Source of the DNA: Ascidia mentula | Lineage: Eukaryota; Chordata; Ascidiacea; Phlebobranchia; Ascidiidae | Direction of reading: 5' to 3' | Length of the DNA: 64,000 nucleotides | Assembly: GCA_947561715.1 (NCBI GenBank) | Contig: OX387199.1 | Span: 1,617,001-1,681,000 of the forward strand | Shown: in pieces, positions 7,300-50,000 of the stretch | How the letters are laid out: each line of letters opens with the position of its first letter | How positions within the stretch are numbered: the first letter of the stretch is position 1 | Made by a program: the position numbers and the translations under genes | The notes under the pieces: generated by a model | Told to the model about the DNA's origin: nothing | Database searches by the model: none | What the model saw: the letters and a program-made list of their open reading frames with translations, nothing else

Positions 7300-10200
7300 C
7301 TGGAAATAAAAGCTTGAATTAGGAAATTAGTTCAGAAAAATGTGACATTAAATGTTTAGAACAAATATAATTGCTGGTAAAATATTAAAAACATCGACCT
7401 ATTGGGTCTCATCAGTGCAGCTATGGATTAACTAGCCAGACATAGATTATTCCATTTTGTGTGCACTACTGTCTGGAACTCACTGATCATTATTGCCTCA
7501 TTGCTTGTAGATATTTTTTTCAGAAAAAAAGAGTTTTACAATTGCTTGTTTGTGTGATTGCGTTATCTTACCAAAACGCTGAAAAGTGTGTTTTGCGTTG
7601 GCACGTGCACCATAGTTTTCTTGCTCTTACTTTGGAAGATAATGATTAAATATGAAGTCGAGTGGACGTGGAATCTCTGCTTGAACACCTGAATTCTATT
7701 GAAACGAGTATCGAGTTCACAATGGAACGTGAATACGTCGGGGTGATATCATTTTTTGATGTTTCCATTTAAAGCGAGAACCGGGGCCCTTCCGCACCAA
7801 CGCATACTGGTAACTGACTCATTCCGACAGGTATCTCTCGTTTGGGTTCGCAAACCCCATTGCCCACAAGCGTGCTGTAGTGCGTGCATTGTGAGCGGAA
7901 ACCTTAGTTTCAGAGGAAGAGGCTCAAAAACAGGAGGTTGGTAATGTGCAAAGTGCTTTTAGCAAATGGCCACCCTCGTTCCACTTAGTGGCGAAACCAA
8001 GATTCCTCGCCTAAAGGTGGCGAAGGGTGGGGTTGTGTTGTTATATATTTTGCAAGGCCTTCAGGTGTTGAACGCCCGCCTATCAGACAGCCTGCTTTGG
8101 TTTCACATCTCAAAGATCGTACATGAGATGCGTTCGATGCTGGAGGTGTGACCGCATACCCTGTGCTGACTGCGACGGCGTATACATTGGCGAGACTGGC
8201 CGCGCCCGAAAAACAACGTAAATGAAACACAAACGCAACGTGACCAACAGGTAAAATTTGGAGAAACGACAGTTTTGGATAAAATAAAGATTATTTCAAA
8301 CGGATGTTTATTGAATAAATGCACCTGAAATGGCACTGAATGTTAAAAAGCAGACATTTTTTCCTTCAGTTTATCGGCACCTAGTGAACTTCCAAGGCAT
8401 CGCAGATTATAATGTTTTTCATTTAAGCCATTTGTTTACATTCTGGTTTGTTTTAAATTACGACAATGAAAGTGTTGCAGCTTCTGCGATACACATTTGT
8501 TAGTTTCGTGCACGAGCACTAAAAAGAGAAAAAAATCTGGAACGTCATAGGCTTGACTCTGATTGTCCAGTGTGCTTGTGGAGATGTGTGGTTGTACGTT
8601 GTAGCGCATTTTCGGCTTGCTACTTCCAACCCCCAATTTATTATGTTTTTCGCGCTTTCTCGCGTTGTTTACACTCACGCACTTTGTCATACAGAAGGTG
8701 ATTTTTTGATTTTTTTTCAAAGAATGATTTTTTTTCATATGAGTTTCCCAGCTAATAGAAATTGCTTGGTAGCGTGGGCCTCTTGTACCGCTCTCTCTGT
8801 ATACGACTATGCGTGTTGGTATTATATGATGCAATATGGAAGGTGTCATCCCGAATTACACATGGCTCCAACTGAATTCGCCCTTTCAGGTTTTTTTATT
8901 GAGGGGAGTGTACAAATATGTTCAAAGAATATTCGTATTCGTATGTTGAGCCTTAGTATTACTGTTACTTGTGATCGAGCTTTACAAACTACCAATGTCT
9001 CCGTCTGCCCTATTGTAACCGCGTTACGCTACCGAAAACTGAAACGCATCTTCAAACAGAGACCTTGTCACGCTTTTTGCATTGGAGGCGACGTCACTTT
9101 CAATCAAGTGCCAAACCACTTTCCGCTCAACAGATTTAAAATAAAATTTCTTTTTTTTAAAGAATTTGGTGCTGATTAGCGCAAGAGTAATTAAAATCGG
9201 TAGATATTTCAGAAAAAGCAAACAGCGTGAAAAGGCCGGTGTTTGAAGTTCTGATGAAATACTTCGCACTTTCAATTCAACATTGTAATTTGTGAGAAAA
9301 TACTGCTAACAAATTTTCCAATAATACGATGTAACCTGTTGTAATACCAACCCAGACGAAGTTCGAATGATCGTATTACAATTTATCGTGAAATGGTAAG
9401 CATTGGTGCGGAATGGTTTGGACTGTAAAACATTTTTTGATTCTGCCAGAATGACGATTGAAATTCAAACCAAGGTAGTGCAACCAGTACTTTTGTCTTA
9501 CTTCGACTTTTGTTTTTTTAAACAGAATAAAGTTATGTGTGGTGAACGATTCCAGATTATCCAAGTGTTTCGTGACCCAAGAAGTTTGGAAACCACTGAT
9601 CTAACATACAACTTACTGGTTTCTTGAGTTTTGATACGGAATTTGCAATATTACAGATTCCACCACTTGTCATCTTACAATCCCACAGAGACAGATCCTC
9701 AATCCACTGAATACATGAAGCAATAGCAGATGCACTTTCATCATCAACTTCGTTCCCACGAAGATTCAACGACGTCATCTGAAACAAATGAAAAATTACT
9801 GGAATCAGTTTTTGTGTCAACAATATCATTGTTATCAATTATGTCGTCACAGAGGCAGAACAATCACTTGGTGAATTTAATCTTTGAGCTCCGGTAGCTC
9901 AGTCAGTTACAGAAAGAACCCGCATTACACATGGTTCCAACTTAGTAACACGTTTGTGACTTTGGTCGCAGTTATATGCCCTGCAGTGCCACGTGACCCA
10001 ATAAATTCAAATGGCTTATTACAAGGAATAAACAAATTTATTGAAGATTTTAGATCGGACCTTCTGGGGTTTATGAAGGGGAGTGTACAAACATTGCGTA
10101 GGAATTTTCCTATTTTACGATTTTGTGAAGCCTTAATCGTTTGCCTTCACTATTTTTTCAATAAAAGACGTTTTATGCAACTGTGTTACGTCAACGAAAA

Positions 10201-13200
10201 CTGAAACGCATATTTTGCGGTGGTTCGTGAGCCATAGTTTTAATTGCTTACACTACTAACAAATTTTTATCAATATTATGTAACCTGTTATAATATAAAC
10301 CCAGAAGAAATTTAAATGTTCGTGCAGAAAGGTCATGTGAAATGGTAATCATTAGTGCGGAACGCTTTTGTCGACAAAACATTTTTAGATTCGACCAAAA
10401 TGATGACAGATTTCAAACCAAAGTAGTGTAACCAGTATTTTTGTTTCAATAAAACTTTATCTTAAACAAAATAAAGTTAGGTTTGGCGAAAGATTCAAAA
10501 TCAATCAAGTGTGTCATGACCCTAAGACAGTGATTCCCAATCTTTTTGTGGTTGTGTACAACTTGGAGGTAAAACAATTTCGACGCGTACAACCTAGTTG
10601 AGTGTTACAAAGTAACCTAGGGGATGAAGTAACGAACATTTCGGGACCACTTACAGTTTTTTAATTCGAACTAAATCCGCTAATTACGGAAAGGTTCTCG
10701 CGTATCACCTGGAATGCCGTCGCGTACCACCGGTTGGGAAACACTGACCTAAGAAGTTTGGAAACCACTGGTCTAACATACAACTTACTGGTTTCTCAAG
10801 TTGTGATATGGAATTTGCAATCATGCAGATTCCACCACTTGTCATCTCACAATCCCACAGAGACAGATTCTCAATAAACTGAATACATGAAGCAATAGCA
10901 GATGCACTTTCATCATCAACTGTGTTCCCATCAAGTTTCAACGACGTCATCTGAAACAAATGGAAAATTACTGGAATCAGTTTTTATGTCAACAATATCA
11001 TTGTTATCAATTATGACGTCACAGAGGCAGAACAATCACTTGGTGAATTTATTCGTTGAGCTCCGATAGCTCAGTCAGTTAAAGAAAGAACCCGAATTAC
11101 ACATGGCTCCAACTTAGTAACACGTTTGTGACTTTGATCGCAGTTATATGCTTGCAATGCCACGAGACCCAATAAAATCAAATGGCTTTTTACAAGGAAT
11201 AAACAAACTTATTGAAGATTTTGAATTGGCCCTTCTAGGGTTTAATAAAGGGGAGTGTACAAACATTGTGTAGGAATTTTCTTGTTTTGTGATTTTGTTA
11301 TACTTTAATCGTTTGCCTTCACTATTTTTAATAAAAGACGTTTTGTGCAACTGTGTTACGTCAACGAAGCCTGAAACGCATATTTTGGGGTGGTGCGTGC
11401 GGCATAGTTTTATTTGCTTACACTACTAACAAAGTTTTTATCAATATTTTGTAACCTGTTATTATATAAACCCAGAAGTAGTTTGAATGTTCGTGTGAAA
11501 GGTCATTTAAAATTGTAATCATTAGTGCGGAACGCTTCTGTCGACAAAACACTTTTAGATTCGACCAAAATGATGACAGATTTCATACCAAAGTAGTGTA
11601 GCCAGTATTTTTGTTTTAACAAATCTTCGTCCTAAACATAATAAAATTAGGTTTAGCCAACGATTCCAAATCATCCAAGTGCGTCATGACCCTACGACAG
11701 TGATTCCCAACCTTTTTGTGGTTGCGTACAACTTGGAGGTAAAACAATTTCGACGCGTACCACCTAGTTGAGTGTTGCAAAGTAACCTAGGGGATGAAGT
11801 AACGAACATTTCGGGATCACTTGCGATTTTTCAATTCGAAATATATCCGCTAATTACGGAAAGGTGCTCGCGTATCACCTGGAATGCCGTCGCGTACCAC
11901 CGGTTGGGAAACACTGCCCTAAGAAGTTTGGAAACCACGGATCTAACATACAACTTACTGGTTTCTTAAGTTGTGATATGGAATTTGCAATCTTACAGAT
12001 TCCACCACTTGTCATCTTACAATCCCTCAGAGACAGATTCTCAATCCAATGAATACATGAAGCAATAGCAGATGCACTTTCATCATCAACTTTGTTCCTA
12101 TCAAGTTTCAACGACGTCATCTGAAACAAATTAAAAATTGCTGGAATCATTTTTATGTCAACAATATCATTGTTGTCAATTATGACGTCACAGAGGCAGA
12201 ACAATCACTTGGGTGAATTTAATCGTTGAGCTCCAGTAGCTCAGTCAGTTAGAGAAAGAATCCGAATTACACATGGCTCCAACTTAGTAACACGTTTGTG
12301 ACTTTGGTCGCAGTTATATGCCTGCAATACTACGAGACCCAATAAAATCAAATGGCTTATTACAAGAAATAAACAAACTTATTGAAGATTTCAGATCGGA
12401 CCTTCAAGTTTTAAAGGGGAGTTAATAAATACGTATGAGGAATTTTCCTATGTTGATCTTTTGTATTACTGTTACTTGTGGTCGAGCTTTACAAAGTATC
12501 AATGCCTGCGTCTGCGCTATTTTTTCAACATAACACGGATTGTGTAACTACGTTACGTTGCCGAAAACTGAAACGCATGTTTTGCGGTGGTACGTGCACC
12601 ATAGTGCGATTAAGCGATATGTGATTCGCTGAAGTATTTTCTTAGCAAAGGATAGGCTACGCTTTAGAATTTACAAGCCCTATGCAATCAACCACATTAG
12701 AAACTTAAACGCATGTTTTGCGGTGGTACGTGCGCCATAGTTTTAGGAATTTTCCTATGTTGATCTGATGTGTTACTGTTACTTGTGATCGAGCTTCACA
12801 AAGTATCAATGCCTGCCCCTGCGCTATTTTTTCAATAAAATATGGATTGTGTAACTGCGTTACGTTGCCGAAAACTGAAACGCATGTTTTGCGGTGGTAC
12901 GTGCAACATAGTGCGATTAAGCGGTATGTGATTCGCTGAAGTATTTTCTTAGCAAAGGACAGGTATACGGTTCAGAATTTACAAGCCCTATGCAAATAAC
13001 CACATTAGCCAATTACAATGGTTCGTACCTTGAAAGTGAGGCCTTGGAAATATTTGGAACCAAATAACGATATGAATAAATACGCATTTACGTAGTCGAT
13101 AAAACTACAAACAAAATATTTTACATTTACAGTTGCCCGATGCAACCCTATTGACTTTTCAAACATTGTTGATACAGCTGAAAAATTAAATCCACTTAAA

Positions 13201-16200
13201 ATTTGGTGTACAACAATGATTACTGAGGCGATTATGTCGTGATCGCATGGAAAATAATGGCATTAAAATCACCATACATCTGAACTATGGGAATAGATTT
13301 CGGGTTTTTGTCTGCGTCGGCCCAACTTTTGCAGAAAAGGCGTATTGTGTAACTGTGGTACCGAACACCAAAACGCATGTTTTGCGGTTGTTTTGTTTCC
13401 GCTTGAATATTCATTTCTGTTGCTGTACATGTAATCCTGAAGTTTGCAAAGCAAAGTAATATATAAGTTCGGACTTATACTGGATCCCACGTCCCTATAC
13501 CTAGATACGCCCATGTATGCTGGAATCAAAACATTACTACACAAGGTGTCAATTAGAAGCAAATACACTGTTTGTGTTAAAAAAAACATACATTCAAATA
13601 CTATGTCATGCTGGCTGAATCAAACAAATTTTGTCGCCGTAAGCGTTCCGCGTCAATGAGTACCATTTCACACGATCGTTTAACACAAACATTCAAACTT
13701 CTTCTGGGTTTACAGTATAACAGGTTACATTATATGGATAAAAAATTTGTTCAAAAACGTTATCTTATGACACACAAATAAACCGATGTTGAAGTCCACA
13801 GTATTCAACAGTAAATCAGAGTGACTTCAAACACAAGCCTTTTCAAGCTTTTTGCTTTGGGGGCGACGTCACTTTCAATCAAGTGCCAAACCAATTTCCG
13901 CTCAGTAATTAAAATCAGTAGAGATCCCAGACAAAGCAAACAGAGTGAAAAGGCCGATGTTTGAAGTCATTCTGATGGCATACTTAGGACTTAAAATTTA
14001 ACATTGTAATTTGTTTGAAATCACTACTAACAAAGTTCCCATTAATATGATGTAACTTGTTGTAATATCAACCCACAAGAAGTTTGAATGTTCGTGTTAC
14101 AGGTTATCGTGAAACGGTAATCATTGGTTCGGAACGCGTTTGACGACAAAACATTTTTTGATTCAGCCCAAATGATGACAGAATTCAAACCAAGGTAGTG
14201 AAACCAGTATTGTTGTTTTAATTCAACTTTTTATTAAACATAATAAAATTAGGTGTTGCAAACGAATCCAGATCATCCAAGTGTGCAGTGGCTCAAAAAA
14301 GTTTGGAAACCACTGGTCTAACATACAACTTACTGGTTTCTTAAGTTGTGATATGGAATTTGCAATCTTACAGATTACACCACTTGTCATCTTACAACGC
14401 TGCAGAGACAGATTCTCAATCCACTGAAGACATGAAGCAATAGCAGATGCACTTTCATCATCAACTGTGTTCAGACCAAGATTCAACGACGTCATCTGAA
14501 AGAAATTAAAAATTACTGGAATCAGTTTTTATGTCAACAATATCATTGTTATCAATTATGACGTCACAGAGGCAGAACAATCACTTGGGTGAATTTAATC
14601 GTTGAGCTCCAGTAGCTCAGTCAGTTAGAGAAAGAATCCGAATTACACATGGCTCCAACTTAGTAACACGTTTGTGACTTTGGTCGCAGTTATATGCCTG
14701 CAATACTATGAGACCCAATAAAATCAAATGGCTTATTACAAGATATAAACAAACTTATTGAAGATTTCAGATCGGACCTTCAAGTTTTAAAGGGGAGTTA
14801 ATAAATACGTATGAGGAATTTTCCTATGTTGATCTTTTGTATTACTGTTACTTGTGATCGAGCTTTACAAAGTATCAATGCCTGTGTCTGCGCTATTTTT
14901 TCAACATAACACGGATTGTGTAACTACGTTACGTTGCCGAAAACTGAAACGCATGTTTTGCGGTGGTACGTGCACCATAGTGCGATTAAGCGATATGTGA
15001 TTCGCTGAAGTATTTTCTTAGCAAAGGATAGGCTACGCTTTAGAATTTACAAGCCCTATGCAATCAACCACATTAGAAACTTAAACGCATGTTTTGCGGT
15101 GGTACGTGCGCCATAGTTTTAGGAATTTTCCTATGTTGATCTGATGTGTTACTGTTACTTGTGATCGAGCTTCACAAAGTATCAATGCCTGCCCCTGCGC
15201 TATTTTTTCAATAAAATATGGATTGTGTAACTGCGTTACGTTGCCGAAAACTGAAACGCATGTTTTGCGGTGGTACGTGCAACATAGTGCGATTAAGCGG
15301 TATGTGATTCGCTGAAGTATTTTCTTAGCAAAGGACAGGTATACGGTTCAGAATTTACAAGCCCTATGCAAATAACCACATTAGCCAATTACAATGGTTC
15401 CTACCTTGAAAGTGAGGCCTTGGAAATATTTGGAACCAAACAACGATATGAATAAATACGCATTTACGTAGTCGATAAAACTATAAACAAAATATTTTAC
15501 ATTTACAGTTGCCCGATGCAACCCTATTGACTTTTCAAACATTGTTGATACAGCTGAAAAATTAAATCCACTTAAAATTTGGTGTACAACAATGATTACT
15601 GAGGCGATTATGTCGTGATCGCATGGAAAATAATGGCATTAAAATCACCATACATCTGAACTATGGGAATAGATTTCGGGTTTTTGTCTGCGTCGGCCCA
15701 ACTTTTGCAGAAAAGGCGTATTGTGTAACTGTGGTACCGAACACCAAAACGCATGTTTTGCGGTTGTTTTGTTTCCGCTTGAATATTCATTTCTGTTGCT
15801 GTACATGTAATCAAGGAGTTTGCAAAGCAAAGTAATATATAAGTTCGGACTTATACTGGATCCCACTCCCCTATACCTAGATACGCCCATGTATGCTGGA
15901 ATCAAAACATTACTACACAAGGTGTCAATTAGAAGTAAATACACTGTTTGTGTTAAAAAAAACATACATTCAAATACTATGTCATGCTGGCTGAATCAAA
16001 CAAATTTTGTCGCCGTAAGCGTTCCGCGTTAATGATTACAATTTCACACGATCGTTTAACACGAACATTCAAACTTCTTCTGGGTTTACAGTATAACAGG
16101 TTACATTATATGGATAAAAAATTGGTTCAAAAACGTTATCTTATGACACACAAATAAACCGATGTTGAAGTCCACAGTATTCAACAGTAAATCAGAGTGA

Positions 16201-19200
16201 CTTCAAACACAAGCCTTTTCAAGCTTTTTGCTTTGGGGGCGACTTCACTTTCAATCAAGTGCCAAACCACTTTCCGCTCAGTAATTAAAATCGGTAGAGA
16301 TCCCAGACAAAGCAAACAGAGTGAAAAGGCCGATGTTTGAAGTCATTCTGATGGCATACTTAGGACTTAAAATTTAACATTGTAATTTGTTTGAAATTAC
16401 TACTAACAAAGTTCCCATCAATATCATATAACCTGCTGTAATATCAACCCACAAGAAGTTTGAATGTTCGTGTTACAGGTTATCGTGAAACGGTAATCAT
16501 TGGTTCGGAACGCGTTTGACGACAAAACATTTTTTGATTCAGCCCAAATGATGACAGAATTCAAACCAAGGTAGTGAAACCAGTATTGTTGTTTTAATTC
16601 AACTTTTTATTAAACATAATAAAATTAGGTGTTGCAAACGAATCCAGATCATCCAAGTGTGCAGTGGCTCAAAAAAGTTTGGAAACCACTGGTCTAACAA
16701 ACAACTTACTGGTTTCTTGAGTTTTGATATGGAATTTGCAATCTTACAGATTCCAACACTTGTCATCCCACAAAACTCCAGAGACAGATTATCAATCCAC
16801 TGAATACATGAAGCAATAGCAGATGCACTTTCATCATCAACTGTGTTCTCATTAAATTTCAACGACTTCATCTGAAAGAAATTAAAAATTACTGGAAGTT
16901 TTTATGTCAACAATATCATTGTTATCAATTATGTCGTCACAGAGGCGGAACAATCACTTGGTGAATTTAATCGTTGAGCTCCAGTAGCTCAGTCAGTTAG
17001 GGAAAGAACCCGAATTACACATAGATCCAACTTAGTAACACGTTTGTGACTTGGGTCGCAGTTATATGTTTGCAATGCCACGAGACCCACAAAAAGCTCA
17101 ATGCGCGGAAACCAACCTAAATTTGAAAGATTATGCACGCCGTATAGTTTTCCGTGTTTAACTGTGTGAATCTATCGTTTTGAAGTGGCTGCATTAGCGA
17201 AAAGTGTTTAGCATGAAGGTTAACTGCTTTAAAATTGTTGCACAACTTCATGGTGTTTAATATTTTTCTGACCTACTGAAAAGACATCATGTTGCACCAA
17301 GTTACTATTTTGCAAAAATACCAAGTGAGTTGTAACTCATCACCACTCACGAAAATTGCGCTGTGTAACGGCCCACAATGCTGCAAACAGATTGTGTTCC
17401 CCGACCAAGACAGCGATTGTCAATTAATGTAAACCCACTGCTGTAAGTAGCAAAAAACTGGAGTGAAAATACCTTCTGCTTTATTGCGCTGGTAACTTCT
17501 TTGATTGCAAATGTGCTGACTTCTGTCATGGTTAGTTCCAGTGTAGGTGGAAATAAATGCATGACACATGACAAAGCACAAGCTTCTTTATCACCATACA
17601 CTGTCAGCTTGTGTGGAATGTTGTCCTGGCCCTGGGTAGATAAAAACAGCCTTTTCATTTTTAGCATAAATATTTTTTAAATGTAAATAAGGCACTTGTA
17701 TATCTTGCTTACAGAAGTACAGGTTGCAGTCCTTGTTTGAGTTTAAATGATGTATTTGCAGTTGAATCGCCAAGTGGATTACATATATAGAACATTCATT
17801 CTTAACACGCTAAACGTTTGCGTCAGATCAAGCATCCCACATAAAAAGTAGTCATCCTATTTGATCATTTTACTAATGATGATTACTGATTCGCTTATTG
17901 TGATGTAGAATATTAATTAACAGCATTAGGCTTAAGAAGCTTCGACTATATTTTCGATGCATCATTGAAAGCTACTTTATTTTACTACCGCAAATGAAAG
18001 TAATGGTGGATGTAATTGTCAACACAAACAAACACATTTTACATAAGAGCCTATTCATACATAGGTTTACTTTCAAATCTATACAAACACAGTCTTTCAT
18101 ATGTATGTGGTCCCCCTATTTAAACAACAACTCGTTGAACATCAGTCTCAAATAGCACTATATGTAGGTATTGCATTGTTTTTTTACGTAGTTCAATTTA
18201 TTTAAAAATTTAATGCTTCCACAGTTTTTAGCATATGAACATAAAATGAATTAATAAAAATTATATAGTTAAATCCAACACAGTAATGCCACAAACCTCA
18301 AACACTGATTTAATGTAAATTTGCATCAGCTCCTCTGAATTTGTTTGATTCTAAAATAACAAAAAAATAAAGTTTGATTTATTACAAGATATGCTGGAAT
18401 GTTGTCAATACCGTTTTTACAATTTGTTTTTGATAATTGTAGATGCAAACCTGGTACCTTTGAAATGCATGGGATGAAATTATATTTTCCAACATTTTTG
18501 ATACCATTTTCAGTTATTTTGAACTTGGACACAAACAACTCATCCACATTGCGAAGAAACGTTTCATTTAGGAGCAAGGGCAACATAGATTTAAAAATCA
18601 CAGTTTTACTTAAATCCAATGATTTTATCTGTAAGAAGTTGAACATCATTAGTCATCAGATTGCTTCTGCCTTTTTGGTACATAGAGGTTCAGTCTTCTT
18701 TGACACTATTTCAGCACAACTGCAAATCAACAATGTGATTAAAACTTACAGGATTCTTTAATTTTGATATGTTGTCAGTGATGGTTTTAAATGTACTATC
18801 AGATATGTTGTAGCCGGATAAGTCCAAATGCTCTGTCATTTGTGCTACTTTAAATGCACATTCATCATCTACCTTGCACCCAATAAGTTTCACCGATTTC
18901 AACTGTAACAAACATCACATTAAGTTCTCTTCGTAAAAAAAGGTTAACAATCTATTTTATAAACCAGGTTTTGAAAATACTTTTATCTATTCTTTTGTTA
19001 GGTTTACAGGCTTCGCGACCCAAGCAAATCCCGCTTAGACTTGTAAGGACTTGTTATTTGAAGTGGCTGATCCAGCTAGGCTGCTATGTCTGGGCTGCTA
19101 AGCCTCTAAACCTAAAAACTTCCATATGATAGATGTTATTGCCAAGTAAGGAGTGGGGTGATCCTGCCAATCATGCCATTGCATGAAACATTACCATGTT

Positions 19201-35064: not shown

Positions 35065-38000
35065 CTGCAAATAAAAGATGAAATTAAGAAATTAGTTCAG
35101 ACAAATGTGACATTAAATGTTTAGAACAAATATAATTGCTGGCAAAATATTATGAAACATCGACCTATCGGGTCTCATCAGTGCAGCTATGGGTTAACCA
35201 GCCAGACATAGATTATTCCATTTTGTGTGCAATACTGTCTGCAACTCACTGATCATTATTAGCTTTGCTTGTGCATACTTTTTTTTACAAAAGCAGTGTT
35301 TTACAATTGCTTGTTTGTGTGATTGCGTTATCTTGCTAAAAAACTTAAAAGTGTGTTTTGCGTTGGCACGTGCACCATAGTTTTCTTGCTTTTACTTTGG
35401 AAGATAATGCTTAAATATGGAGTCGAGTGGACGTGGAATCTCTGCTTGAACACCTGAATTCCATTGAAACGAGTATCGAGTTCACATTGGAACGTGAATA
35501 CGTCAGGGTGATATCATTTTTTGATGTTTCCATTTAAAGCGAGAACCGGGGCCCTTCCGCACAAACGCATACTGGTAACTGACTCATTCCGACAGGTATC
35601 TCTCGTTTGGGTTCGCAAACCCCATTGTCCACAAGCTTGCTGTAGTGCGTGCATTGTATACAAGAGCGGAAACCTTAGTTTCAGAGGAAGAGGCTTAAAA
35701 CAGGAGGTTGGTAATGTGCAAAGTGCGTTTAGCGAATGGCCACCCTCGTTCGTTTCTGTGGCGAAACCAAGATTCCTCGCCTAAAGTTGACGAAGGGTGT
35801 GGTTGTGTTGTTATATAAGGGGTCCAGGTGCTTAAACGCCCGCCTGTCAGACAGCCTGCTTTGGTTTCACATCTCAAAGATCGTACGTGAGATGCGTTCG
35901 ATGCTGTAGGTGTGATCGCATACCTTGTGCTGACTGCGACGGCGTATACATTGACGAGACTGGCCGCGCCCGACAAACAACGCAAAAGGAACACAAACGC
36001 GACGTGGCCAACCGCGAGTACAGCGTTGTCGCAACATGTAGCGGATACAGGTGAATTTAAAAGAAACGACAGTCCTGGTAAACTCCGCATAGAGTTACAC
36101 TCGTCAAGGTTCTTAACACGCAGTTTCGTTTGCCTCGTATTTGCGATCTACAAAACCCAACACAAGCGAAATGTTTGTGACGAACGTGTGGAGATAGAAT
36201 TTGTCCTTTGTGTAGAGAAAATTGATTATCGAGTTCGTCGCGAAAACATTTACCCTAAACAATGTTTCGTCCAGTTTTTAGATAACATTGTTCGCCGGCC
36301 AAAAAAATTGTTAACATTATAGACCCTATAACTTGTATAATATGGCGTTCAAACAACCTTGTGAGCTTAGCATTATTTACTCGCCGCACCCCCGTTGATG
36401 TGCAAAACTTTATGCCTGTGCTCACAAAGCATCGCAGATTTTCATTTGGTAAATATTTGTGTTAAATTAAGCCATTGTTTACATTCTTGTTTGTTTTAAA
36501 TTACGACAATGAAAGTGTTGCAGCTTCTGCGATACACCACATTTGTAAATATTGCCTGGGAGTCTGGGCCTCTTGTACCCCTTCCTGTTTACGACTATGC
36601 GTGTTGGTATCATATGATGCAATATTGAAGGTGTCATCCCGAATTACACATGCCTCCAACTTAGTAACACGTTTGTGACTTTGGTTGCAGTTATATGCTT
36701 GCAATGCCACGAGACCCAATAAAATCAAATGGCTTATTACAAGAAATAAACAAACTTGTTTGAGTTTTGAATTGGTCCTTCTGGGGTCTGAAACAGGGAA
36801 TTGTACAAATATTGTGTAGAAATTTTCCTATTTTGTTATACCTTAATCGTTTGGTAACAGATCACGGATTTACTCATACTCATAATTCTGAGAATAAAAA
36901 AATGGCCCATATTGTTATTAACATTGTCATGTTTAAAACGTTTCGGCAAGAACTTATGCCATTAACCGTTAGCCTTCACTATTTTTTCAATAAAAGACGG
37001 TTTGTGCAACTGTGTTACGTCAACGAAAACTGAAACGCATATTTTGCGGTGGTGCGTTTGCCATAGTTTTAATTGCTTACACTACTAAAAAAGTTTTTGT
37101 CAATATTTTGTAACCTGTTATAAGATAAACCCAGAAGAAGTTTGAATGTTCGTGTAAAACGGTCATGTGAAATGATAATCATTAGTGCGGAACGCTTTAG
37201 TCGACAAAACACTTTTAGATTCGACCAAAATGATGACAGATTTCAAACCAAAGTAGTGTAACCAGTATTTTTGTTTTAATAAACATTCTTCTTAAACATA
37301 ATAAAGTCAGGTTTGGCGAACGATTCCAAATCATCCAAGTGTGTCATAACCCGAAGACAGTGATTCCCAACCTTTTTGTGGTTGCGTACCACTTGGAGGT
37401 AAAACAATTTTGACGCGTACCACCTAGTTGAGTGTTACAAAGTAACCTAGGGGATGAAGTAACGAACATTTTGAGATCACTTACAGTTTTTGTAAATTCG
37501 AACTATATCCGCTAATTGAGGAAAGGTGCTCGCGTACAACTTGGAATGCCGTCGCGTACCACCGGTTGGGAAACACAGCCGTAAGAAGTTTGGAAACCAC
37601 TGGTCTAACAAACAACTTACTGGTTTCTTAAGTTGTGATATGGAATTTGCAATCTTACAGATTCCACCACTTGTCATGTTACAATTCCACAGAGACAGAT
37701 TCTCAATCCACTGAATACATGAAGCAATAGCAGATGCACTTTCATCATCAACTGTGTTCCAACCAAGATTCAACGACGTCATCTGAAACAAATGAAAAAT
37801 TGCTGGAATCAGATTTCATGTGAACAATATCATTGTTATGAATTATGACATCACAGAGGCAGAACAATCACTTGGTGAATTTAATCGTTGAGCTCCGGTA
37901 GCTCAGTTAGTTAGAGAAAGAACCTGAATTACACATGGCTCCAACTTAGTAACACGTTTGTAACATTGGTAGGTGTGATATGCTTGCAATGCCACGAGAC

Positions 38001-41000
38001 CCAATAAAATCAAATATCTTATTACAAGAAATAAACAAACTTATTGAAGATTTTGAATTGGCCCTTCTGGGGTTTAATAAAGGGGAGTGTACAAACATTG
38101 TGTAGGAATTTTCAATTTTGTTAAACCTTAATCGTTTGCCTTCACTATTTTTAATAAAAGACGTTTTGTGCAACGGTGTTACGTCAACGAAAACTGAAAC
38201 GCATATTTTGCGGTGGTGCGTGCGGCATAGTTTTAATTGCTTACACTACTAACAAAGTTTTTATCAATATTTTGTAACCTGTTGTAATACAAATCCAGAA
38301 GAAGTTTGAATGTTCGGGCAAAAAGGTCATGTCAAATAGTAATCATTAGTGCGGAACGCTTTTGTCGACAAAACACTTTTAGATTTGACCAAAATGATGA
38401 CAGATTTCAAACCAAAGTAGTGTAACCAGTATGTTTGTTTTAATATAGCCTAACTTTATCTTAAACAAAATAAAGTTAGGTTTGGCGAACGATTCCAAAT
38501 CATCCAAGTGTGTCATGACCCTAAGACAGTGATTCCCAACCTTTTTGTGGTTGCGTACAACTTGGAGGTAAAACAATTTCGACGCGTACCACCTAGTTGA
38601 GTGTTACAAAGTAACCTAGGGGATGAAGTAACAAACATTTAGGGACCATTTACGATATTTAAATTCGAAATATATCCGCAAATTACGAAAAGGTGCTCGA
38701 GGACCATCTGGAATGCCGTCGGGTACCACCGGTTGGGAACCACAATCTAACATACAACTTACTGGTTTCTTAAGTTGTGATATGGAATTTGCAATCGTAC
38801 AGATTCCACCACTTGTCATCTTACAACGACACAGAGACAGATCCTCAATCCACTGAATACATGTAGCAATAGCAAATGCACTTTCATCATCAACTGTGTT
38901 CCCATCAAGATTCAACGACGTCATCTGAAACAAATGAAAAATTACTGGAATCAGATTTTATGTCAACAATATCATTGTTATCAATTATGACGTCACAGAG
39001 GCAGAACAATCACTTGGTGAATTTAATCGTTGAGCTCCGGTAGCTCAGTCAGTTCGAGCAGGTTTTCCCAAACTTTTTTGGCCGCGGAACCCTTATCTTA
39101 CGTCAGATCATTTTTCCCACGTAATCAGTGGAAAATAATTGTCCACTATACGTATTGTAAAGCTTACGAAACCACTCAAGTTATAAATTACTGCAGTGAA
39201 TGCTGCTTAGGCACTGTATGAAACGTACCAGTTGCGTTTTAAAAATATCTTTTAACACTTGTGTAACGGTGTTGCGTTACCGAAAACTAAAACGCATGTT
39301 TTGCGGCGGTGCGTGCCCCATGGTTTCATTAGCTTTTACCAGTCGAATCCAGTAAATCGCAAACAAATACAACTGCTGGTACAATGTTAAAAAACATCGA
39401 CCTATCGGGTCTCATAAGTGCAGCTATGGGTTAACTAGCCAGACATACATTATTCCATTTTGTGTACACTACTGTCTGCAACTCACTTATCATTATTGCC
39501 TCATTGCTTGTACATATTATTTTACAAAAAGCAGGGTTTTACAATTGCTTGTTTGTGTGATTGCGTTATCTTACTAAAAACCTTAAAAGTGTGTTTTTGC
39601 GTTGGTACGAGCACCATAGTTTTCTTGCTTCTACTTTGGAAAACAATGCTTAAATATGGAGTCGAGTGGACGTGGAATCTCTGCTTGAACACCTGAATTC
39701 CTTTTAAACGAGTATCGAGTTCACAATGGAACGGGAATACGTGGGGGTGATATCATTTTTTAATTTTTCCATTTAAAGAGAGAACCGAGGGCTAAAGGTG
39801 ACGAAGGATGCTTGTACATATATTTTTAAGAAATGCCAGGTTTACGAAATGCTACATCGCGTGCTTTGGTTTCGCCTTCCAAAGATCGTAAAGGAGATGC
39901 GTTCGATACTGGAGGTGTAACCGCATACCCTGTGCTGACTGCGACGTCGTATGCATTGACGAGACTGGCAGCGCCTAACGAACAACGCAATAGGAACACA
40001 AACGCGACGTGCCCAACCGCGGGTACAGCGTTGTCGCAACTTATAGCAGATACAGGTGAATTTTGGAGAAACGACATTTTTGGGTAAAAAAATGACAAGT
40101 TTAAACGGATGTTTATAGAATAAATGCATATGAATTCACGCTGAATGTTAGAACGCAGACATTTTTTCCAGCAGTGTATCGACACCTGGTAAACTCCCAA
40201 AGCATCGCTGATTTTAATGCTTAATAATTCAGTTAAATTACGTCATTGTTTCCATTCTGGTTTGTTTTAAATGGCATCGTTGAAAGTTATAGGCTTGACT
40301 CTGATTGTCCAGTGTGCTTGTGGAGATGTGTGGTTGTACGTTGATGCGCATTTTCGGCTTGCTTACACCTTTCGTCTTTCTTCTTCCCACACCCCTTGGC
40401 GTTTTTTCGCGCTTTCTTGTGTTTACGGTGTTGTTTACATTCACGCACTTTGTCCTAACAAAGATTGATTGCATGACGACAGAAACGTCGATCAAATAAA
40501 TTTAACGCACGAGCTTCAAAAATTGATTAAATAATGCTTGAATATGATTGGGACCAAAAATCATTTAACTGAATACGAAGTTGTGTATGGAAAAAAGAAT
40601 GCAAAGTTTTTTTTTTACGAGGTTTCCAGCTGATAGATTTTGCTTGGGAGCCTGGGCCTCTTGTACCCCCTCTGGGTACGACTATGCGTGTTGGTATCAC
40701 GAGATGCAATATGGAAGGTGTCACTGGAGATGCATTGTTTGAAGTTTGGGTAAAAGTAAAACATTCATCTAAACTGGGGTTGTGCAACCTGTGGCTCGCG
40801 GATTGAAATTCTGCTGCCCGCTATAATTTAGACAAAAAAATTATTTTAAACTAGTCCTACTACGTAGAAATGTTCCACGACACGTCATCAAGCAATCAGT
40901 CATGCATGAAGGTTAATATTAGGCCCAAGCGTTGAGCATAGACGCGTGTAATACTCATTTCGCAAGGATAATTAAATTTCCTGCTATAAAGCCAAGTCTC

Positions 41001-44000
41001 ATTTCACGTTAGAATCATTCTATTATTTTGTGCTATTTGAAAATACAACATTGGCGATGAGGAGACCTTTGAATTACTCTTAACTGCTGAACGGAAGAAC
41101 ACTATAGGGAATTTTTTTGAACTTGTATACATAAGCAGATGGACGCACAGGAGTGACGTCGCCAGGAGTTTATAATGGAACGTGAATATGTCGGGGTGAT
41201 ATCATTTTTTGATGTTTCCATTTAAAGCGAGAACCGGAGACCTCTCCGCACAAACGTATACTGGTTACCGACTCATTCCGACAGGTATCTGTCGTTTCGG
41301 TTCGCGAACCCCATCGCCCACAAGCGTGTTGTAGTGCGTGCACTGTATACAAGAGCGGAAACCTTAGTTTCAGAGGAAGAGGCTCAAAAACAGGAGGTTG
41401 GTAATGTGCAGAGTGCGATTTTAGTGAATGGCCACACTGGTTCGTTTCTGTGGCGAAACCAAGATTTCTCGCCTAAAGGTGACGAAGGGTGTGGTTGTGT
41501 TGTTATATATTTTGCAAGGCCTTCAGGTGTTTGAACGCCCGCCTGTTATACAGCGTGCTTTGTAAACTCCCAAGCACTGGCGTGGAGTACGAGACTTCGG
41601 CTTTCGTCGGTTTGAACCGTGGCAAAAATGAAGGCGCATTTCACTGCTGTTTAAACGTTCTTAACACGCAGTTTCGTTTGCCTCGTATTTGCGATCAACA
41701 ATAACGCAGCACAAGCGAACGTTTGTGATGAACTTGTGGAAGGAAGAATTTATCGTTTGTGTAGAGAAAATTGACTACCGAGTTCGCCGCGAAAACATTT
41801 ATTTAAAACCACGTTTTGTTTTGTCCAGTTTTTCGGTCGAAGATTACATATACCAATGGCCATAAAAATTGTCAACATCGAAGATCCTATAAACTGAATA
41901 TTATTGCGTTCAAACAACCTTCTGAGGTTAGCATTAATACTCGCCGCACCCCGGTGATGTGCAAAACTTTACGCCTCTACTCCCAAGGTATCGTAGATTT
42001 TAATTAATTTATCTAGTTAAATTACTCTATTGTTTACATTCTTTGTTGTTTTAAATTACGTCGCTGAAAGTCTTGCAGTTTCTGCGATACACCAAATTTG
42101 TAAGTTTCGTGCACGAGCACTTAAAAGAGAAAAAATCCGGGGACGTCATAGGCTTGACTCTGATTGTCCAGTGTGCTTGTGGAGATGTGTGGTTGTACAT
42201 TGATGCGCATTTTCGGCTTGCTTACACCTTTCGTCTTTCTACTTCACGCCTCCCCTTCGTGTTTTTCGCGCTTTCTTATCTTTACCGTGTTGTTTACACT
42301 CACGCACTTTGTCCTGAAGAAGTTCGATTGCATGACGACAGAAACGTCGATTAAACAAATTTTATCCCGTGAGTTTCAAAATTAATTAAATATGCTTGAA
42401 AAAATTTAGAACAAAAAATTTTTTAACTCCATACGCATTTGTGCAGAAAAAAAATGATATATTTTCATATAAGGTTGCCAGCTAATAGATATTGCTTGAG
42501 AGCGTGGGCCTCTTGTACCCCCTCCCTCTGAATACGACTATGCGCGTGGGTATCATTTGTTACAACATGGAAGGTGTTGTTGCGCTCACTTTACCGCATT
42601 AAAACGAAGCGGATTAAATTCCTTTTTTCGCCGCGTTTCTCTTTTGCGGGTGTTGCGTGGACTCGTGGAGTCAGTCGTAAACTTTGGCAATGCAATCAAG
42701 CAGCACAGCGCTTTAGTGTCATCTCGAATTACACATGGCTCCAACTTACTAACACATTTGTGATTTTGGTCATAGTTATATGCTTGCATTTTCACGAAAG
42801 CCAATAAAACTATTACAAGGAATAAACAAACATATTTTTGCATTTCACCTTTTAAGTTGTTTTATTAATGGGTAGTGCACAAATATGTTCAAGGAATATT
42901 CGTATTCATATGCGAAGCTTTTTTATTACGGTTACTTGAGAGCAAACATTACAAACCACCAATGTCTGCGTCAGCGCTATTTTTGAAATAAAAGACGGTT
43001 TGTGTAACTGTGTTACGTTATAGCGAAACCTGAAGCGCATGTTTTGCGGCGGTGCGTGAGTCATAGTTTTATTTGCTTTTACTTTGAAGTAAGGTCTGGG
43101 AAATATTGAAACCAAATACAGATAGGAATAAAAACGCATATTGGTAGTCAATGAAAATTCCAACAAAAATTTGTATTTGATATAAATTTGCCTGATGCCA
43201 CCCTGAGTAAATTGTAAGTCAGACAATGAGTATTGCTTGTTAGTCCGGACCTACTGGATCCCAGTCACCTAAACCTAGTTATTCCCATGTATGCTAGTAT
43301 CAGAAGATTGCTACACAAGGTGTCAATAAAAGCAAATACACTGTTAGGGTTAGAAAAACATATATTTAAATACTTTCGTCATTCTGGCAGAATCAAAAAA
43401 AATTTATCGCCATAAGCGTTCCGCGTTAATGATTACAATTTCACAAGACCGTTTAACACGAACATTCAAACTTTTTCCGGGTTTACAGTACAACAGGTTA
43501 CATTTTATATATCGACAAAAACTTTGTTCCAAGAACTTGGTGCTAATTAGCGTAAGAGTAATTAAAATCTTTAGAGATCCCAGATAAAGCAAACAGCGTG
43601 AAATGCCCGGTGTTTGAAGTCATTCTGATAAAATACTTCTGACTTTAAAAAAATTCAACATTGGAATTTGTGAGAAATTACTGCTATTAAAGTTTCCATC
43701 AAAATGATGTAACCTGTTGTAATATAAACCCAAAAGAAGTTTGAATGTTTGTGCAAAAAGTTATCGTGAAATGGTAATCATTGGTGCGGAACGCTTTTAA
43801 TGATAAAACATTCTTTTCATTCTGCCAGAATGATGATTTAAATTCAAACCAAGGTAGTGTAACAGGTATTGTTGTTTTAATTTAGCTTTTCCTAAACAGA
43901 ATAAAGTTATGTGTGGTGAACGAATCCAGAACATCCAAGTGTGTCGTGACCCTAAAAAGTTTGGAAACCATTGGTCTAACATACAACTTACTGGTTTCTT

Positions 44001-47000
44001 AAGTTGTGATATGGAATTTGCAATCGTACAGATTCCACCACTTGTCATCTCACAATACCCCAGAGACAGATCCTCAATCCACTGAATACATGAAGCAATA
44101 GCAGATGCACTTTCATCATCAACTGTGTTCCAACCAAGATTCAACGACGTCATCTGAAACAAATGAAAAATTACTGGAATCAGTTTTTATGTCAACAATA
44201 CATCATTGTATCAATTATGTCGTCACAGAGGCAGAACAATCACTTGGTGAATTTAATCGTTGAGCTCCGGTAGCTTAGTCAGTTAGAGTAGGTTTTCCCA
44301 AACTTTTTTGGCCGCGGAACCCTAATCTTACGTCAGATCATTTTTCCCACGTAATTAGTGGAAAATAATTGTCCCCTATACGTATTGTAAAGCTTACGAA
44401 ACCACTCAAGTTATAAATTACTGCAGTAAATGCTGCTTAGGCACTGTATGAAACGTACCAGTTGTGTTTTAAAAATATCTTTACGGACCCCCGTGCAGTC
44501 ATTGCGGACCCCAATTTCGGAACCCCTGAGTTAGAGAAAGAACCCGAAATGTTTGTGGAGATGTGTGGTTGAACGTTGATGCGCATTTTCGGCTTGCTTA
44601 CTCCTTTCGTCTTTCTTCTTTCCACATCCCCTTGGGTTTTTTTCGAGCTTTCTTATATTTACGGTGTTGTTTACATTCACGCACTTTGTCCTAACGAAGA
44701 TTGATTGCACGACGACAGAAACGCCGATCAAACAAATTTTTACGCACGAGCTTCAAAAATTGATTAAATAATGCTTGAATATGATTGGGACCAAAAATTA
44801 TTTAACTGAATACGAAGTTGTGTTTTTTTTACGAGGTTCCCAGCTGATAGATTTTGCTTGGAAGTTTGGGCCTCTTGTATCCCCTCCCTACGACTATGCG
44901 TGTTGGTATCACGAGATGCAATATGGAAGGTGTCACTAGAGATGCATTGTTTGAAGTTTGGGTAAAAGTAAAACATTCATGTAAACTGGGGTTGTGCAAC
45001 CTGTGGCTCGCGGATTGAAATTCTGCTGCCCGCTATAATTCAAAAAAATATTTTAAACTAGTCCTACTACGTAGAAATGTTCCAGGACACGTCATCAAGC
45101 AATCAGTCATGCATGAAGGTTAATATTAGGGCCAAGCGTTGAGCACAGACGCGTGTAATACTCATTTCGCAAGGATATTCAAATTTTCTTCCAAGTCTCA
45201 TTTCACGTTAGAATCATTCTATTATTTTGTGCTATTTAAAAATACAACATTGACGATGAGGAGACCTTTGAATTACCCCCAACTGCTGAACGTAACAAAA
45301 CTATAGAGAAAATTTTTGAACATGTACAAAAGCAGATGGACACGCAGGAGTGACGTCACCAGGAGCAAATGAATGTAATGCTGAAGCTTATTAGAAGATG
45401 AATGTTAGGACGGAAACGTTTTATTGTTCGTGAGTGGTTCAAGTTCAGGAGTGGAAGCCAGGAGAAACCATAAGCACTGCGGACAAGATTCGTTTGTTCC
45501 GTGATTAACAAGACAATGTTAAAGGCTCTGTTTAAGGTTAAGAATGAAGAACTGAAGTTCGTTTTTGTGGAAACTGAAACAGTTTTTGGTCCTGAAAGGG
45601 ACTCCTCCGTCAATAAGTTTAAAGGGGGCAAGACTTAATTTTCCGGGATACCTCAAAGGAATCGTTAAAGTGCCACAGGTGCGGGAAATCTGGACATTTT
45701 GCATTGGCCTGTCGTATTAAAAACTCGGTCTAACTTCTGCAAACGCAAAGGTCATCTGCAAGCTGTGTGTCGTTAGAAGACCCAGATTTCAAGTGTGAGG
45801 TTGGTGACCTCTGCTAACTGCAAAACGGTTCCAAAACTTGTATTTCTACTTGTTGACTTCTTCAAATCGTTCAAGGTGGAACTCGATACCCCTGCAGGTG
45901 GTAACATTTTGTTACCTAACGTTTTGAAAAGCACTGGACGATCGAAGCTTGAGGCCACTAGCGTTTCTCACCGATCTGCCTCCGGTCTTCCCCTGAATAT
46001 TATTATTTCATGCCGGTTGAAGGTTTACCTTCCAAATAAAGATATCACGAGCGTGCTTACGTTTTGCGTAACACGACTTGACAATTGAGAGTATTCTGGG
46101 AAGAGACTGATTTAAGGAACTGAAGATTTTTCTGGACAACATTTTGTATGGAACAGGAAAGCTGTCCACAAAGTTGTTGTCTGGCATTGAATCGCATGAA
46201 GATTTCCAACAAGAATGCAAGAGAATTTGCATGGATTTTCCTAATTTGTTTAAAGAAGTAATATTTCATGCAAAAGCATGATTGGCAGGATCGCCCCACT
46301 GCGCAGGTCCTTGCTTGGCGATCACAGCTATCGTACGGGGTATATTGCATGAAATATTACTGCGTTATCTGATACGGTGGTAGAGATCCCCTACGTATAT
46401 GTGAAGGTTGCCTGGCAACAGCAAACAGTGTACCTTGGCCACAATATACCCCGTGAAACCACTGAGCTCCTGTAGCTCAGTTGGTAGAGCGTTGGGCCTG
46501 GTTAGCCCAGGGTCGTGAGTTCAAACCTCAACGGGAGCTTGATTTTTCAAATCTTGCTCCGACTTGTCAGGAAAAAGTGGCTGATCCAGCTAGGCTGCAA
46601 TGCCTGGGCTGCCAAGCCTGCAAACCTAATGATTGTTTAAAGAAGGGTTGGAAACGTTACAAGGCGTCGAGTTAAAGGTGCAGTTCAAGCACAACCCAAC
46701 TCCAGTGTATCACAAACCAAGGCAGGTTCCGTTTGCTCTGCTTGACGATTTGAACCAATGTTACGAAGCAGGAATTCGAATCAGAAAATGGACATCAGCA
46801 GGGGAACACCGGTAGTTCCAGTAAGGAAGTCTTCATGACCAGGTCGGACATCTGGTAAAGTGAGTGGCGATTACTCGGTGACGGTTAATCCCCAACTAGA
46901 CACACACCGCCAGCCGCTGCCGTTACCAAGCTATTTGATGCAGCAATTGGGTGGAGGTTACGGTTTTACCAAGAAAGACCTGTCAGACGCTGCCAGTTGA

Positions 47001-50000
47001 AAAAATGCAAATTCGCACCTTGGGCATCTTCTCACCATAGAGGGTAGAAAAGCAAGGTCGACGTATCATAAAAATGCTCCCACCTGAAACTGTGTCAACC
47101 CTCCGATCATTTTTGGGTGCTCTTCAGTTTTACAGCATGTTTCTACCCCCGGAATTTTCAGCAGTCGCAGAACCGTTGTACCGGCCAACGAACAAAGGCA
47201 GTTACTTGGAGGTGGCAGAAGAAAGAACAAGAAGTTTTCAAGCAATTCAAACATCTTCTTTCATCAGACAATGTTCTCACACATTTCGATCCAAGCCATC
47301 CGATTGGAATAGCATGTGGTGCACCCAGTATAGAAATTGGTGCAGTTTTATTTCATCGTTTCGCGGATGGAAGCGAAAGGCACAAATATTTCAAAAACAA
47401 AGGCTGAATGTCAGAGGAGATACAGCCATATCCAGAAGGAAGCTTAACCAATTGTGTTCGCCATTCGCAAGTTTTTTCAGTTTTTTTCAATCGAAAATTT
47501 ATTTTGATGACTATCCACAAACCGTTGTCGTCGATTTTTGGACCGACGAAGGCTGTTTCAACGTTCGCAGCAAGTCGTTTGGCAAGATGGACGCAGCTAC
47601 TCATCAAGTTCTCTTATGATATGGAGTACATAAAAACTTTCGACATTCACAATGCCGACGCTCGTAGTCGTCTTCCAGCTGGAAAGTATCGCACATTTGA
47701 TGAGGAGGAAACCGCCGTTTATACGGACACGGTATGTGCGATTACTACGTTGAGTAATCAAGTGAAGCCCGCAGACGTGACAGCTATATTTGTCCGAGGT
47801 CATGAGGTAAACTCAAGAAGGTTGGCAAAATTAACATTTCGACAAGGGAAGTTCGCTCAGTCGTTACAGTCAGATTACAGATTCCCTTAGCGTCAGTCAT
47901 GGTTGGTTACTGTACGGCTGCAGAGTTGTGATACCTGCAAAACTCCAACCCGAAGTTTTCAAGTTGTTGCATTATGGTCACTTGGGAATGCAAAAGATGA
48001 AGCGATTGGTAAGAACAGCTGATACAGGGTCAAATATTGACAAAGACATCATGGATACGTGTCGCAAATGCCACAACTGTGCATCAAAATGCTTCACCGA
48101 AAGCTTCATTTTATCCTTGGGTTTTACCTGAAAAACCTTGGTGTCGACCACATGAGGGCCATGCCAATGACTTTATGGGTCACAATGGACGCGGAATGGG
48201 AATGGTTATTCGACTAGACAACTTCTCAACAATCAGCAAATGCGTACGAAGATTGACGCGCTTATACCTTCAACACTCATATTACTCAGGATAAATTGTC
48301 GAGAGAAACTTCAGACGCGAACTCGACAAAACATCGCAGTGCACGGACTGCGTACAAAGTAGGGATGCCATGCTACGCATTGCACTACGGCTCAAAACAT
48401 GAACGTGCACCACGTTGGGTTCCAGCTGTAACCCGATCTGTTGCAGTGAAAGTGCTGCCAAGCGGGCAAGTGTGCCGCCGCCACATTGAGCAACTGCGCC
48501 ATGTGCTGTTGCTTGTGCGAATTTGAGCTTAATATGGACAGTTTTAATGAAGCATTTAAATTAAACAATCATTTTCGTAAACAGGTTCAAACTGTATGCA
48601 TCAAGTGCAATCACTTGACTGTATTAAATTTTTCCTAAAAATGTTGACTAAATATAGTTGAAAAATTAAGTCCACTTTAAATTTGGTATGGCGAACGAAT
48701 CCAGAACATCCAAGTGTGTCATGGTCCTAAAAACTTTGGAAACCACTGGTCTAACATACAACTTACTGGTTTCTCAAGTTGTGATATGGAATTTGCAATC
48801 TTACAGATCCCACCACTTGTCATCTTACAACCCCACAGAGACAGATTCTCAATCCACTGAATACATGAAGCAATAGCAGATGCACTTTCATCATCAACTG
48901 TGTTCCCATCAAGTTTTAACGACTTCATCTGAAATTATTTCATATACAAATTAGTTACAAGTGGACAACTATTGATTTTTCCCGTGAATATTTTATCATA
49001 ACTTCAAATATATCCAGGTTTCACATGAATACTGTTGTTAGTTTAAATTACTAAAAGTTGTCTTAATTTCCTGCCCCCCAACTATCCTTCATGTAAAACC
49101 AATTCCTTGATTCAACTACAAACTGGGGGATATGCCAAAACGAACACGAACCCGAAGATTCTGCAAATGGCAGCTTAATTTTAATATTTGTGTGAAGCTG
49201 AATAATAAGTGATATTCCGGGGCAAATATTTATTAGTGCGTATAATGATAGTTTTGTAATATAGCGTATTATAAAATTATATAATGCTATAACTTAATAC
49301 CAATCATTTAACACCATTTTATAATTATGGTGGCCGCAAAAAATTATAATGTGGCTGATTTGTGGAAGTTTATCAAACTCCCTAAATAAAAAAGCCAAAG
49401 CTAAAGGTGCTGCTCATCATAATGCTGGTAAAGGTTTTGAACTCATACAGCATTATGATGAACAGCATTCTAGCTTTGGCTTTTTTATTTAGAATACTTA
49501 ACTACAGATACTTTGCACCCAATTATCAAACTGTGTTTGCAGAATTCTGATGTCTGTAATTAGTCGTAGCCTGAGCAACATACTTGCAAGCATGATACAG
49601 GCCAAGCTAATGGTGACGTCACACTTTACACACGAATATATTCATTTTGTGCAAATAATGTGTCGCATTATTTAACGTAAAAATACTTTTATTTTGATGG
49701 CAAAGTTCGCAAGCAAATGAATAATAAACATGATACATAAAATAGCACCAATAAAACCATAAGGGTTATCATGTCAAGTGTCCATGTATTGCCACGAAAC
49801 TTGAATCTTTGTCAATTTGGGACATCCCTACCACATGCAACTACAATGTGACAGGAAAAATCTCATGTGTGACTTCAAGATATTTATCGGTCACCACATT
49901 TCCAATATATAACAATTTGCTAAGGTTAAGGCATATTGCCAAATGCTCAGTTTTGACCAATTCGGCAAATATACCTTTTGGTTTATTGCTTCAATCACTT

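What the first reader, a model, noticed from the sequence alone, without database searches (positions are those of the whole stretch)
14334..16871. LRR exons diverge about 25-fold more than the intron that touches them
In the 2,376-bp tandem duplication, exons 14334-14495 and 16710-16871 differ at 18 of 162 bases (13 of 54 residues), whereas the 233 bp of intron immediately left of each (14101-14333 versus 16477-16709) differ at 1 base. The upstream intron also stays nearly identical. Exons are normally more conserved than introns; here change is confined to the exon and is overwhelmingly amino-acid altering. Strong diversifying selection, or replacement of only the exon by conversion from other array exons, would explain it. 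A targeted diversification process cannot be excluded.
Basis: seen in the sequence. Interest (0 to 1): 0.95.

Follow-up and report, generated by a model that had tools for sequence, protein, structure and literature searches.

The report
Hypervariable LRR exons in NLR array
In a genome that is probably a sea squirt's, copied immune-receptor exons keep near-identical introns and silent sites while the few amino acids expected to touch a ligand change very fast, which looks like strong selection for new recognition and needs no special mutator.

Summary
Exons 14334-14495 (A4) and 16710-16871 (A5) differ at 18/162 bases and 13/54 residues. Their left introns differ at 1/233, the whole introns at 31/2213. 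The duplication joint lies at 14552-14560, outside the exon, so A4 and A5 are sister exons.

Each exon encodes two LRRs. I compared 75 splice-intact copies. Change is concentrated in seven codons at the x positions of LxLxxN/CxL, taken as the concave face. In 12 independent sister pairs (A4/A5 not among them), flanks differ at 29/2001 and exon silent sites match (6/421). Hypervariable nonsynonymous sites differ at 62/192, 22-fold more. Silent sites in the same codons differ at 0/51, where mutation blind to meaning predicts 16.3. NACHT exons of three close gene copies look purified.

Best explanation: unequal crossing-over, then very strong diversifying selection on ligand-facing codons, with some exon-limited exchange. 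Across the array, exon silent divergence stays flat while near flanks rise from 1% to 13%; selection on residues alone does not explain that.

Codon-blind hypermutation is rejected. An exon-bounded (for example RNA-templated) exchange is not excluded. Closest known: brown-algal LRR exons and venom-gene ASSET.

The parts
14334..14495 (-). exon A4, 54 codons, two LRRs (MTSLNLGLNTVDDES...SISQLKKP)
   Evidence: open frame, AG/GT borders; Pfam LRR_6 22.1 bits, just under the 23.4 cut-off; PDB profile hit 4r5d, E 2.5e-4
16710..16871 (-). exon A5, sister of A4
   Evidence: 18/162 differences from A4, of which 17 nonsynonymous
14466..14483 (-). A4 hypervariable codons 5-10 (first LRR strand; same in A5 at 16842-16859)
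   Evidence: and codon tables
14391..14402 (-). A4 hypervariable codons 32-35 (second LRR strand; same in A5 at 16767-16778); codon 34 itself is a constant Cys
   Evidence: codon 33 is NNT in 75/75 copies with 12 of the 16 NNT codons used
14101..14333 (-). intron left of A4; its copy 16477-16709 differs at 1 base
   Evidence: next best match in the genome search 88%
12121..14333 (-). intron A3-A4, duplicate of intron A4-A5 (14496-16709), 31 mismatches
14552..14560 (.). joint of the unequal crossing-over that made the tandem copy
   Evidence: A4 follows A5 up to 14551 and A3 from 14561
11959..12120 (-). exon A3
   Evidence: 12 differences from A4, 17 from A5
9617..9778 (-). exon A1
10789..10950 (-). 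exon A2
37621..37782 (-). exon A6
38763..38924 (-). exon A7
43992..44153 (-). exon A8
48767..48928 (-). exon A9
51299..51460 (-). exon A10 (ITFF type)
54206..54367 (-). exon A11
54875..55036 (-). exon A12
55341..55490 (-). A13, diverged exon of the same type; left out of the 75 (splice border not found in the 54-codon frame)
55628..57478 (-). NACHT exon of the gene that carries the A exons to its left; used as control
   Evidence: Pfam NACHT 53.8 bits, cut-off 26.7; NOD2_WH 27.5, cut-off 23.1

Best explanation
The exon is a two-repeat LRR cassette of an animal NLR array. Unequal crossing-over in the introns copies cassette plus intron (shown for A4/A5). Selection for new ligand specificity then fixes amino-acid changes at the strand x positions of the LRRs, so these codons diverge about 20 times faster than introns and silent sites (rates shown; ligand binding inferred). 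Exchange limited to the exon spreads codon blocks between copies and keeps the rest of the exon uniform across the array (supported statistically; mechanism inferred). No mutator is needed.
For: A4/A5 are sisters on both sides of the exon: left 1/233, right 56 bp with an indel only, yet 17 nonsynonymous and 1 silent change. Sister pairs chosen by near flanks alone: 6 independent pairs, flank 9/1006, backbone silent 2/185, hypervariable silent 0/28, backbone nonsynonymous 15/625, hypervariable nonsynonymous 22/94; 12 pairs, flank 29/2001, silent 6/421, hypervariable nonsynonymous 62/192. Codon 33 changed in 12 of 13 independent pairs with intron divergence under 5%. Nonsynonymous rates per site are alike at the three codon positions (0.159, 0.129, 0.158), as expected if meaning and not position decides. 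NACHT exons of three close gene copies: pS 0.046-0.062, pN 0.019-0.027. Exchange: identical codon 32-33-35 blocks among exons with flank p>=0.06, 35 pairs v 19.5 +/- 4.8, 0/400 shuffles; exon pairs with <=5 differences and flank p>=0.10, 24 v 4.5, 0/100; C52:2147906 and C52:1875053 differ at 2/162 in the exon but 17/175 in the near flanks, although the latter's flanks lie 5.5% from exon A8, whose exon differs at 9 bases, all in codons on the hypervariable list.
Against: The hypervariable list was drawn from the same family before the rates were measured, though it equals the x positions of LxLxxN/CxL minus the constant Ser30. One close pair shows no hypervariable amino-acid change. Exon and flank histories are only partly decoupled: nearest neighbour shared by the two flanks in 16/74 exons, by either flank and the exon in 10/74. 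The constant multi-base share (0.45, 0.41, 0.36, 0.41 from youngest to oldest pairs) fits import of whole codons better than slow point change. Silent sites stay near 0.6 differences per pair while near flanks go from 1% to 13%, which selection on residues does not by itself explain. No codon-model fit was obtained (the IQ-TREE output gave no omega) and no structure was predicted.
Confidence: 0.78

Rival explanations
1. The exon alone is overwritten by conversion from other array exons; ordinary selection is enough and the A4/A5 contrast is just a donor difference.
For: Exon-limited sharing across unrelated flanks; share of multi-base codon changes does not grow with age; in C-type exons of the same genes silent divergence exceeds intron divergence (for example 105226 v 216604: introns 16/397, pS 0.18).
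Against: Closest A-exon sister pairs have exon silent divergence equal to the flanks (ratio 0.99-1.13). No donor closer than 7 bases (A4) or 12 (A5) among 75 exons. A4's codon 23 and A5's codons 7 and 27 carry bases seen in no other of the 75. In the nine closest pairs 8 of 23 changed hypervariable codons are multi-base (counted from the listing), within reach of repeated single hits. Conversion moves diversity but does not create 12 NNT codons at codon 33.
Confidence: 0.13
2. Targeted hypermutation of the hypervariable codons (AID-like or error-prone copying).
For: Changes sit in seven codons; codon 33 is NNT in 75/75 with first and second bases near saturation.
Against: Silent sites inside the same codons do not change: 0 seen, 16.3 expected in 12 pairs; 2 seen, 23.3 expected in 19 pairs. 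Third-position nonsynonymous changes are as frequent per site as first and second.
Confidence: 0.04
3. The exon contrast is an artefact of where the duplication joined (hybrid exon) or of assembly.
For: Tandem near-identical 2.4-kb units are error-prone to assemble; a third exon A3 lies on the other side.
Against: The joint maps 57-65 bp outside the exon; 17 of 18 changes are nonsynonymous; other loci repeat the pattern.
Confidence: 0.02
4. Silent sites of the A exons are themselves constrained (splicing enhancers or RNA function), so the flat silent divergence says nothing about exchange.
For: Fourfold sites differ at 27/3366 in pairs whose introns differ by 6-12%, with no gradient in the adjoining intron.
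Against: Seven related B-type exons differ from the A consensus at 22/66 fourfold sites; over all 75 copies silent variation is higher at codons 2-4, 7, 8 and 51 than in the core, whereas splicing constraint would be expected strongest at exon edges (recalled). In pairs with intron divergence 5-12% that edge effect is not seen at fourfold sites of codons 1-8 (0/579). NACHT exons of the same genes show fourfold divergence 0.038-0.064.
Confidence: 0.25

Closest known systems
Brown-algal LRR-ROCO genes (Ectocarpus, Saccharina; PMC11378527, passages read)
   Different: One LRR per 72-bp phase-2 exon and a ROC-COR core there; two LRRs per 162-bp phase-0 exon and a NACHT gene here. In the passages seen (terms searched: synonymous, gene conversion, intron) silent or intron rates were not compared.
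ASSET in snake three-finger toxin genes (PMC2474615, passages read; PMC2711939, listing only)
   Same: Introns alike between paralogues while segments of exons differ; scaffold kept, target surface changed.
   Different: Whole exon segments of unrelated sequence are switched there; here single codons change on an otherwise constant exon.
Zebrafish NLR-B30.2 family (PMC4852459, passages read)
   Same: Large NLR array shaped by gene conversion, exon shuffling and positive selection.
   Different: That paper finds the LRRs 'not particularly variable' and places recognition in B30.2; here the LRR exons are the variable part.
Plant NLR LRRs and jawless-vertebrate VLRs (recalled; plant case also stated in a passage of PMC11378527)
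   Same: Concave LRR residues under diversifying selection.
   Different: Plant LRRs are not exon cassettes of this kind; VLRs are assembled somatically. Neither point was tested here.

Membership tests
Animal NLR (NACHT-LRR) | NACHT NTPase with winged-helix region | tested here: met
   Minus ORF 55628-57478: NACHT 53.8 bits (cut-off 26.7), NOD2_WH 27.5 (23.1); NLRC4_HD2 24.6, under its cut-off 33.1. Met for the 28-60 kb gene; the gene that carries A1-A5 shows only the C-terminal part.
Animal NLR (NACHT-LRR) | C-terminal LRRs in the same transcript as NACHT | not testable with these tools
   Order, strand, phase and splice borders fit, but no transcript was available.
RI-type LRR | Repeats of about 28 residues with LxLxxN/CxL | tested here: met
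   MTSLxLxxNxV... and NLSLxxCxM...; profile hits 4r5d E 2.5e-4 and RanGAP1 E 0.0019; Pfam LRR_6 E 1.4e-4 but 1.3 bits under its cut-off.
LRR exon cassettes under diversifying selection (brown-algal kind) | nonsynonymous excess over silent change at strand x positions | tested here: met
   62/192 v 0/51 in the same codons, 12 pairs.
LRR exon cassettes under diversifying selection (brown-algal kind) | shuffling of exons or their parts between genes | tested here: inconclusive
   Block sharing above shuffles, but nearest-neighbour test only mildly discordant.
ASSET | exon segments switched for dissimilar ones with introns kept | tested here: not met
   Introns kept, but changes are single codons on a constant backbone, not segments.
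Diversity-generating hypermutation | silent and replacement sites of target codons both mutate | tested here: not met
   0 silent seen, 16.3 expected.

The most novel reading that the evidence does not exclude
The array has an exchange process bounded by the exon itself, for example templated by spliced RNA or cDNA. It would keep the exon uniform at silent sites whatever the introns do (0.8% at fourfold sites beside introns 5-9% diverged within 20 bp, with no gradient), pass codon blocks between genes on two contigs, and so feed the rapid change of ligand-facing codons.
Probability: 0.08. Interest if true: 0.95.

Novelty: new variant of a known kind. Interest (0 to 1): 0.64.

Why it matters
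It would be an animal NLR array whose LRR exons, not an added domain, behave as a germline repertoire of recognition cassettes, with replacement change at ligand-facing codons about 20 times the silent rate. Near-identical introns and silent sites give each sister pair its own internal clock, so selection, exchange and mutation can be told apart directly, which is rarely possible in immune families. The exon-wide silence of synonymous sites is a second, separate puzzle.

Tried and rejected
Hybrid-exon joint: rejected, the joint lies outside the exon. Codon-blind hypermutation: rejected. Immobile third bases at hypervariable codons (suggested by NNT at codon 33): not general, third-position nonsynonymous rate equals the others. 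Strong linkage between adjacent hypervariable codons at amino-acid level: not found for 32-33 or 33-35 (11 of 66 codon pairs had p<0.05); the codon-level block test was positive. Flank v exon nearest neighbour: weak difference. Codon-model omega by IQ-TREE: output gave no omega. A first exon scan returned nothing because of a wrong pattern, repeated. Structure prediction never ran.

Rows left out: 79 exon places collected, 4 dropped for borders; 74 of 75 used; 51 exons; 1465 of 2775 pairs passed the flank-length filter. The genome search scored 40 of 210, 40 of 212 and 40 of 125 candidates, so the 75 exons are a part of the family.

Full report
Setting. The window is G000:C52:1617001-1681000 of a 195.8-Mb, 79-contig genome. 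The genome has a bacterial-type cellulose synthase piece on a 19.9-Mb contig (for place and length, for the PDB matches); since tunicates are the animals known to have such a gene (recalled), the source is probably a tunicate. This was not tested further. A minus-strand NACHT exon lies at 55628-57478.

Observation. A4 (14334-14495) and A5 (16710-16871) differ at 18/162, the 233 bp to their left at 1. The introns A3-A4 and A4-A5 differ at 31 of 2213 aligned bases with one gap. Of the 18 changes 17 are nonsynonymous. Three-way alignment with A3 puts the joint of the duplication at 14552-14560: left of it A4 follows A5, right of it A3. So A4 and A5 were one exon when the unit was copied.

The exon family. 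The window holds 12 full A exons and a diverged thirteenth. With 200 kb to the right and further stretches, 79 places were collected and 75 kept. Each exon is 162 bp, phase 0, two repeats of the form LxLxxN/CxL. Variation is concentrated in codons 5, 7, 8, 10, 32, 33 and 35, the x positions of the two strands, with lesser variation at 2, 28, 39, 43 and 52 (51 exons, 75 exons). That these face the ligand rests on the known LRR fold; no structure was predicted here.

Rates. Sister pairs were chosen by near flanks only (130 bp upstream, 38 bp downstream). In 6 independent pairs flanks differ at 9/1006, backbone silent sites at 2/185, hypervariable silent sites at 0/28, backbone nonsynonymous sites at 15/625 and hypervariable nonsynonymous sites at 22/94. 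In 12 pairs the figures are 29/2001, 6/370, 0/51, 35/1247 and 62/192; in 19 pairs 67/3165, 9/585, 2/80, 53/1974 and 88/302. A4 enters these sets with C52:1821882 (flank 1/167, 7 exon changes, all nonsynonymous), so A4/A5 itself is not counted. Mutation blind to meaning would give 16.3 silent changes in the hypervariable codons of 12 pairs; none is seen. The NACHT exon of three close gene copies has pS 0.046-0.062 and pN 0.019-0.027.

What selection alone leaves open. Between copies whose near flanks differ by 1% to 13%, silent exon differences stay at 0.33 to 0.78 per pair, and fourfold sites differ at 27/3366 where introns differ by 6-12%, although intron bases 0-20 from the exon differ by 5-9%. 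Other exons do not do this: NACHT fourfold sites differ at 0.038-0.064, and C-type LRR exons exceed their introns. Z-type LRR exons also vary at strand x positions, with few fourfold changes. Two readings remain: exchange limited to the exon, or constraint on silent sites. For exchange: block sharing 35 v 19.5 (0/400), near-identical exons in unrelated flanks 24 v 4.5 (0/100), the pair C52:2147906/1875053 (2/162 exon, 17/175 near flank), more silent variation at exon edges over all copies, and B-type exons that differ at 22/66 fourfold sites. Against a simple form: the edge effect is absent at fourfold sites of codons 1-8 in moderately diverged pairs (0/579), flanks show no gradient, and the nearest-neighbour test is only mildly discordant (16/74 v 10/74).

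Point change or import. The share of multi-base changes among changed hypervariable codons is 0.45, 0.41, 0.36 and 0.41 in pairs of rising age, which favours import of codons from the pool. But the nine closest pairs have 8 multi-base codons of 23 (counted), which repeated single hits can give, and A4 and A5 carry bases found in no other copy. Both probably act.

Literature. Ten searches of the open library were made. In the listings shown I saw no report of this pattern in a tunicate or other animal NLR; most listings were cut (for example 12 of 48, 12 of 57), and subscription journals are mostly missing. Passages of PMC11378527, PMC4852459 and PMC2474615 were read.

Verdict. A real and recurring pattern: extreme diversifying selection on LRR cassettes of an NLR array, with an unexplained uniformity of the rest of the exon. 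New variant of a known kind.

Noticed in passing
21282-22757 (-): The gene that carries A1-A5 shows only the C-terminal part of a NACHT exon (about 110 aa, 50-66% identical to the others) behind proline/glutamine-rich open frames; its NTPase core was not found in the window.
   Followed up: partly
7150-7299 and 34912-35064 (-): A second LRR exon type (Z) near the gene ends also varies at strand x positions: 76% amino-acid identity within a region 91% identical in DNA; the copy at contig position 1685022 has a stop.
   Followed up: partly
49975-50130, 52311-52466 (-): C-type LRR exons differ more at silent sites than the introns beside them in several pairs, unlike A exons; this looks like import of diverged exons.
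   Followed up: partly
1-8248, 28703-36012, 61429-64000: The 3' module of the NLR gene recurs at 91-95% identity, so the window holds at least two tandem genes and the start of a third.
   Followed up: no
13040-14333, 15416-16709 and other A introns: Introns carry repeats with ends like CAGTGGTTTCCAAAC, reminiscent of transposon ends (recalled); homology of many A introns stops about 38 bp from the donor site at such a sequence.
   Followed up: no
46465-46540 (+): ARAGORN calls a tRNA-Thr (ggt) inside the NLR gene region; it may be a real gene or a derived repeat.
   Followed up: no
codon 33 of A exons, e.g. 14397-14399: All 75 copies have T at the third base while 12 of the 16 NNT codons are used; Glu and Lys never occur there though they are common at codons 32 and 35.
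   Followed up: partly
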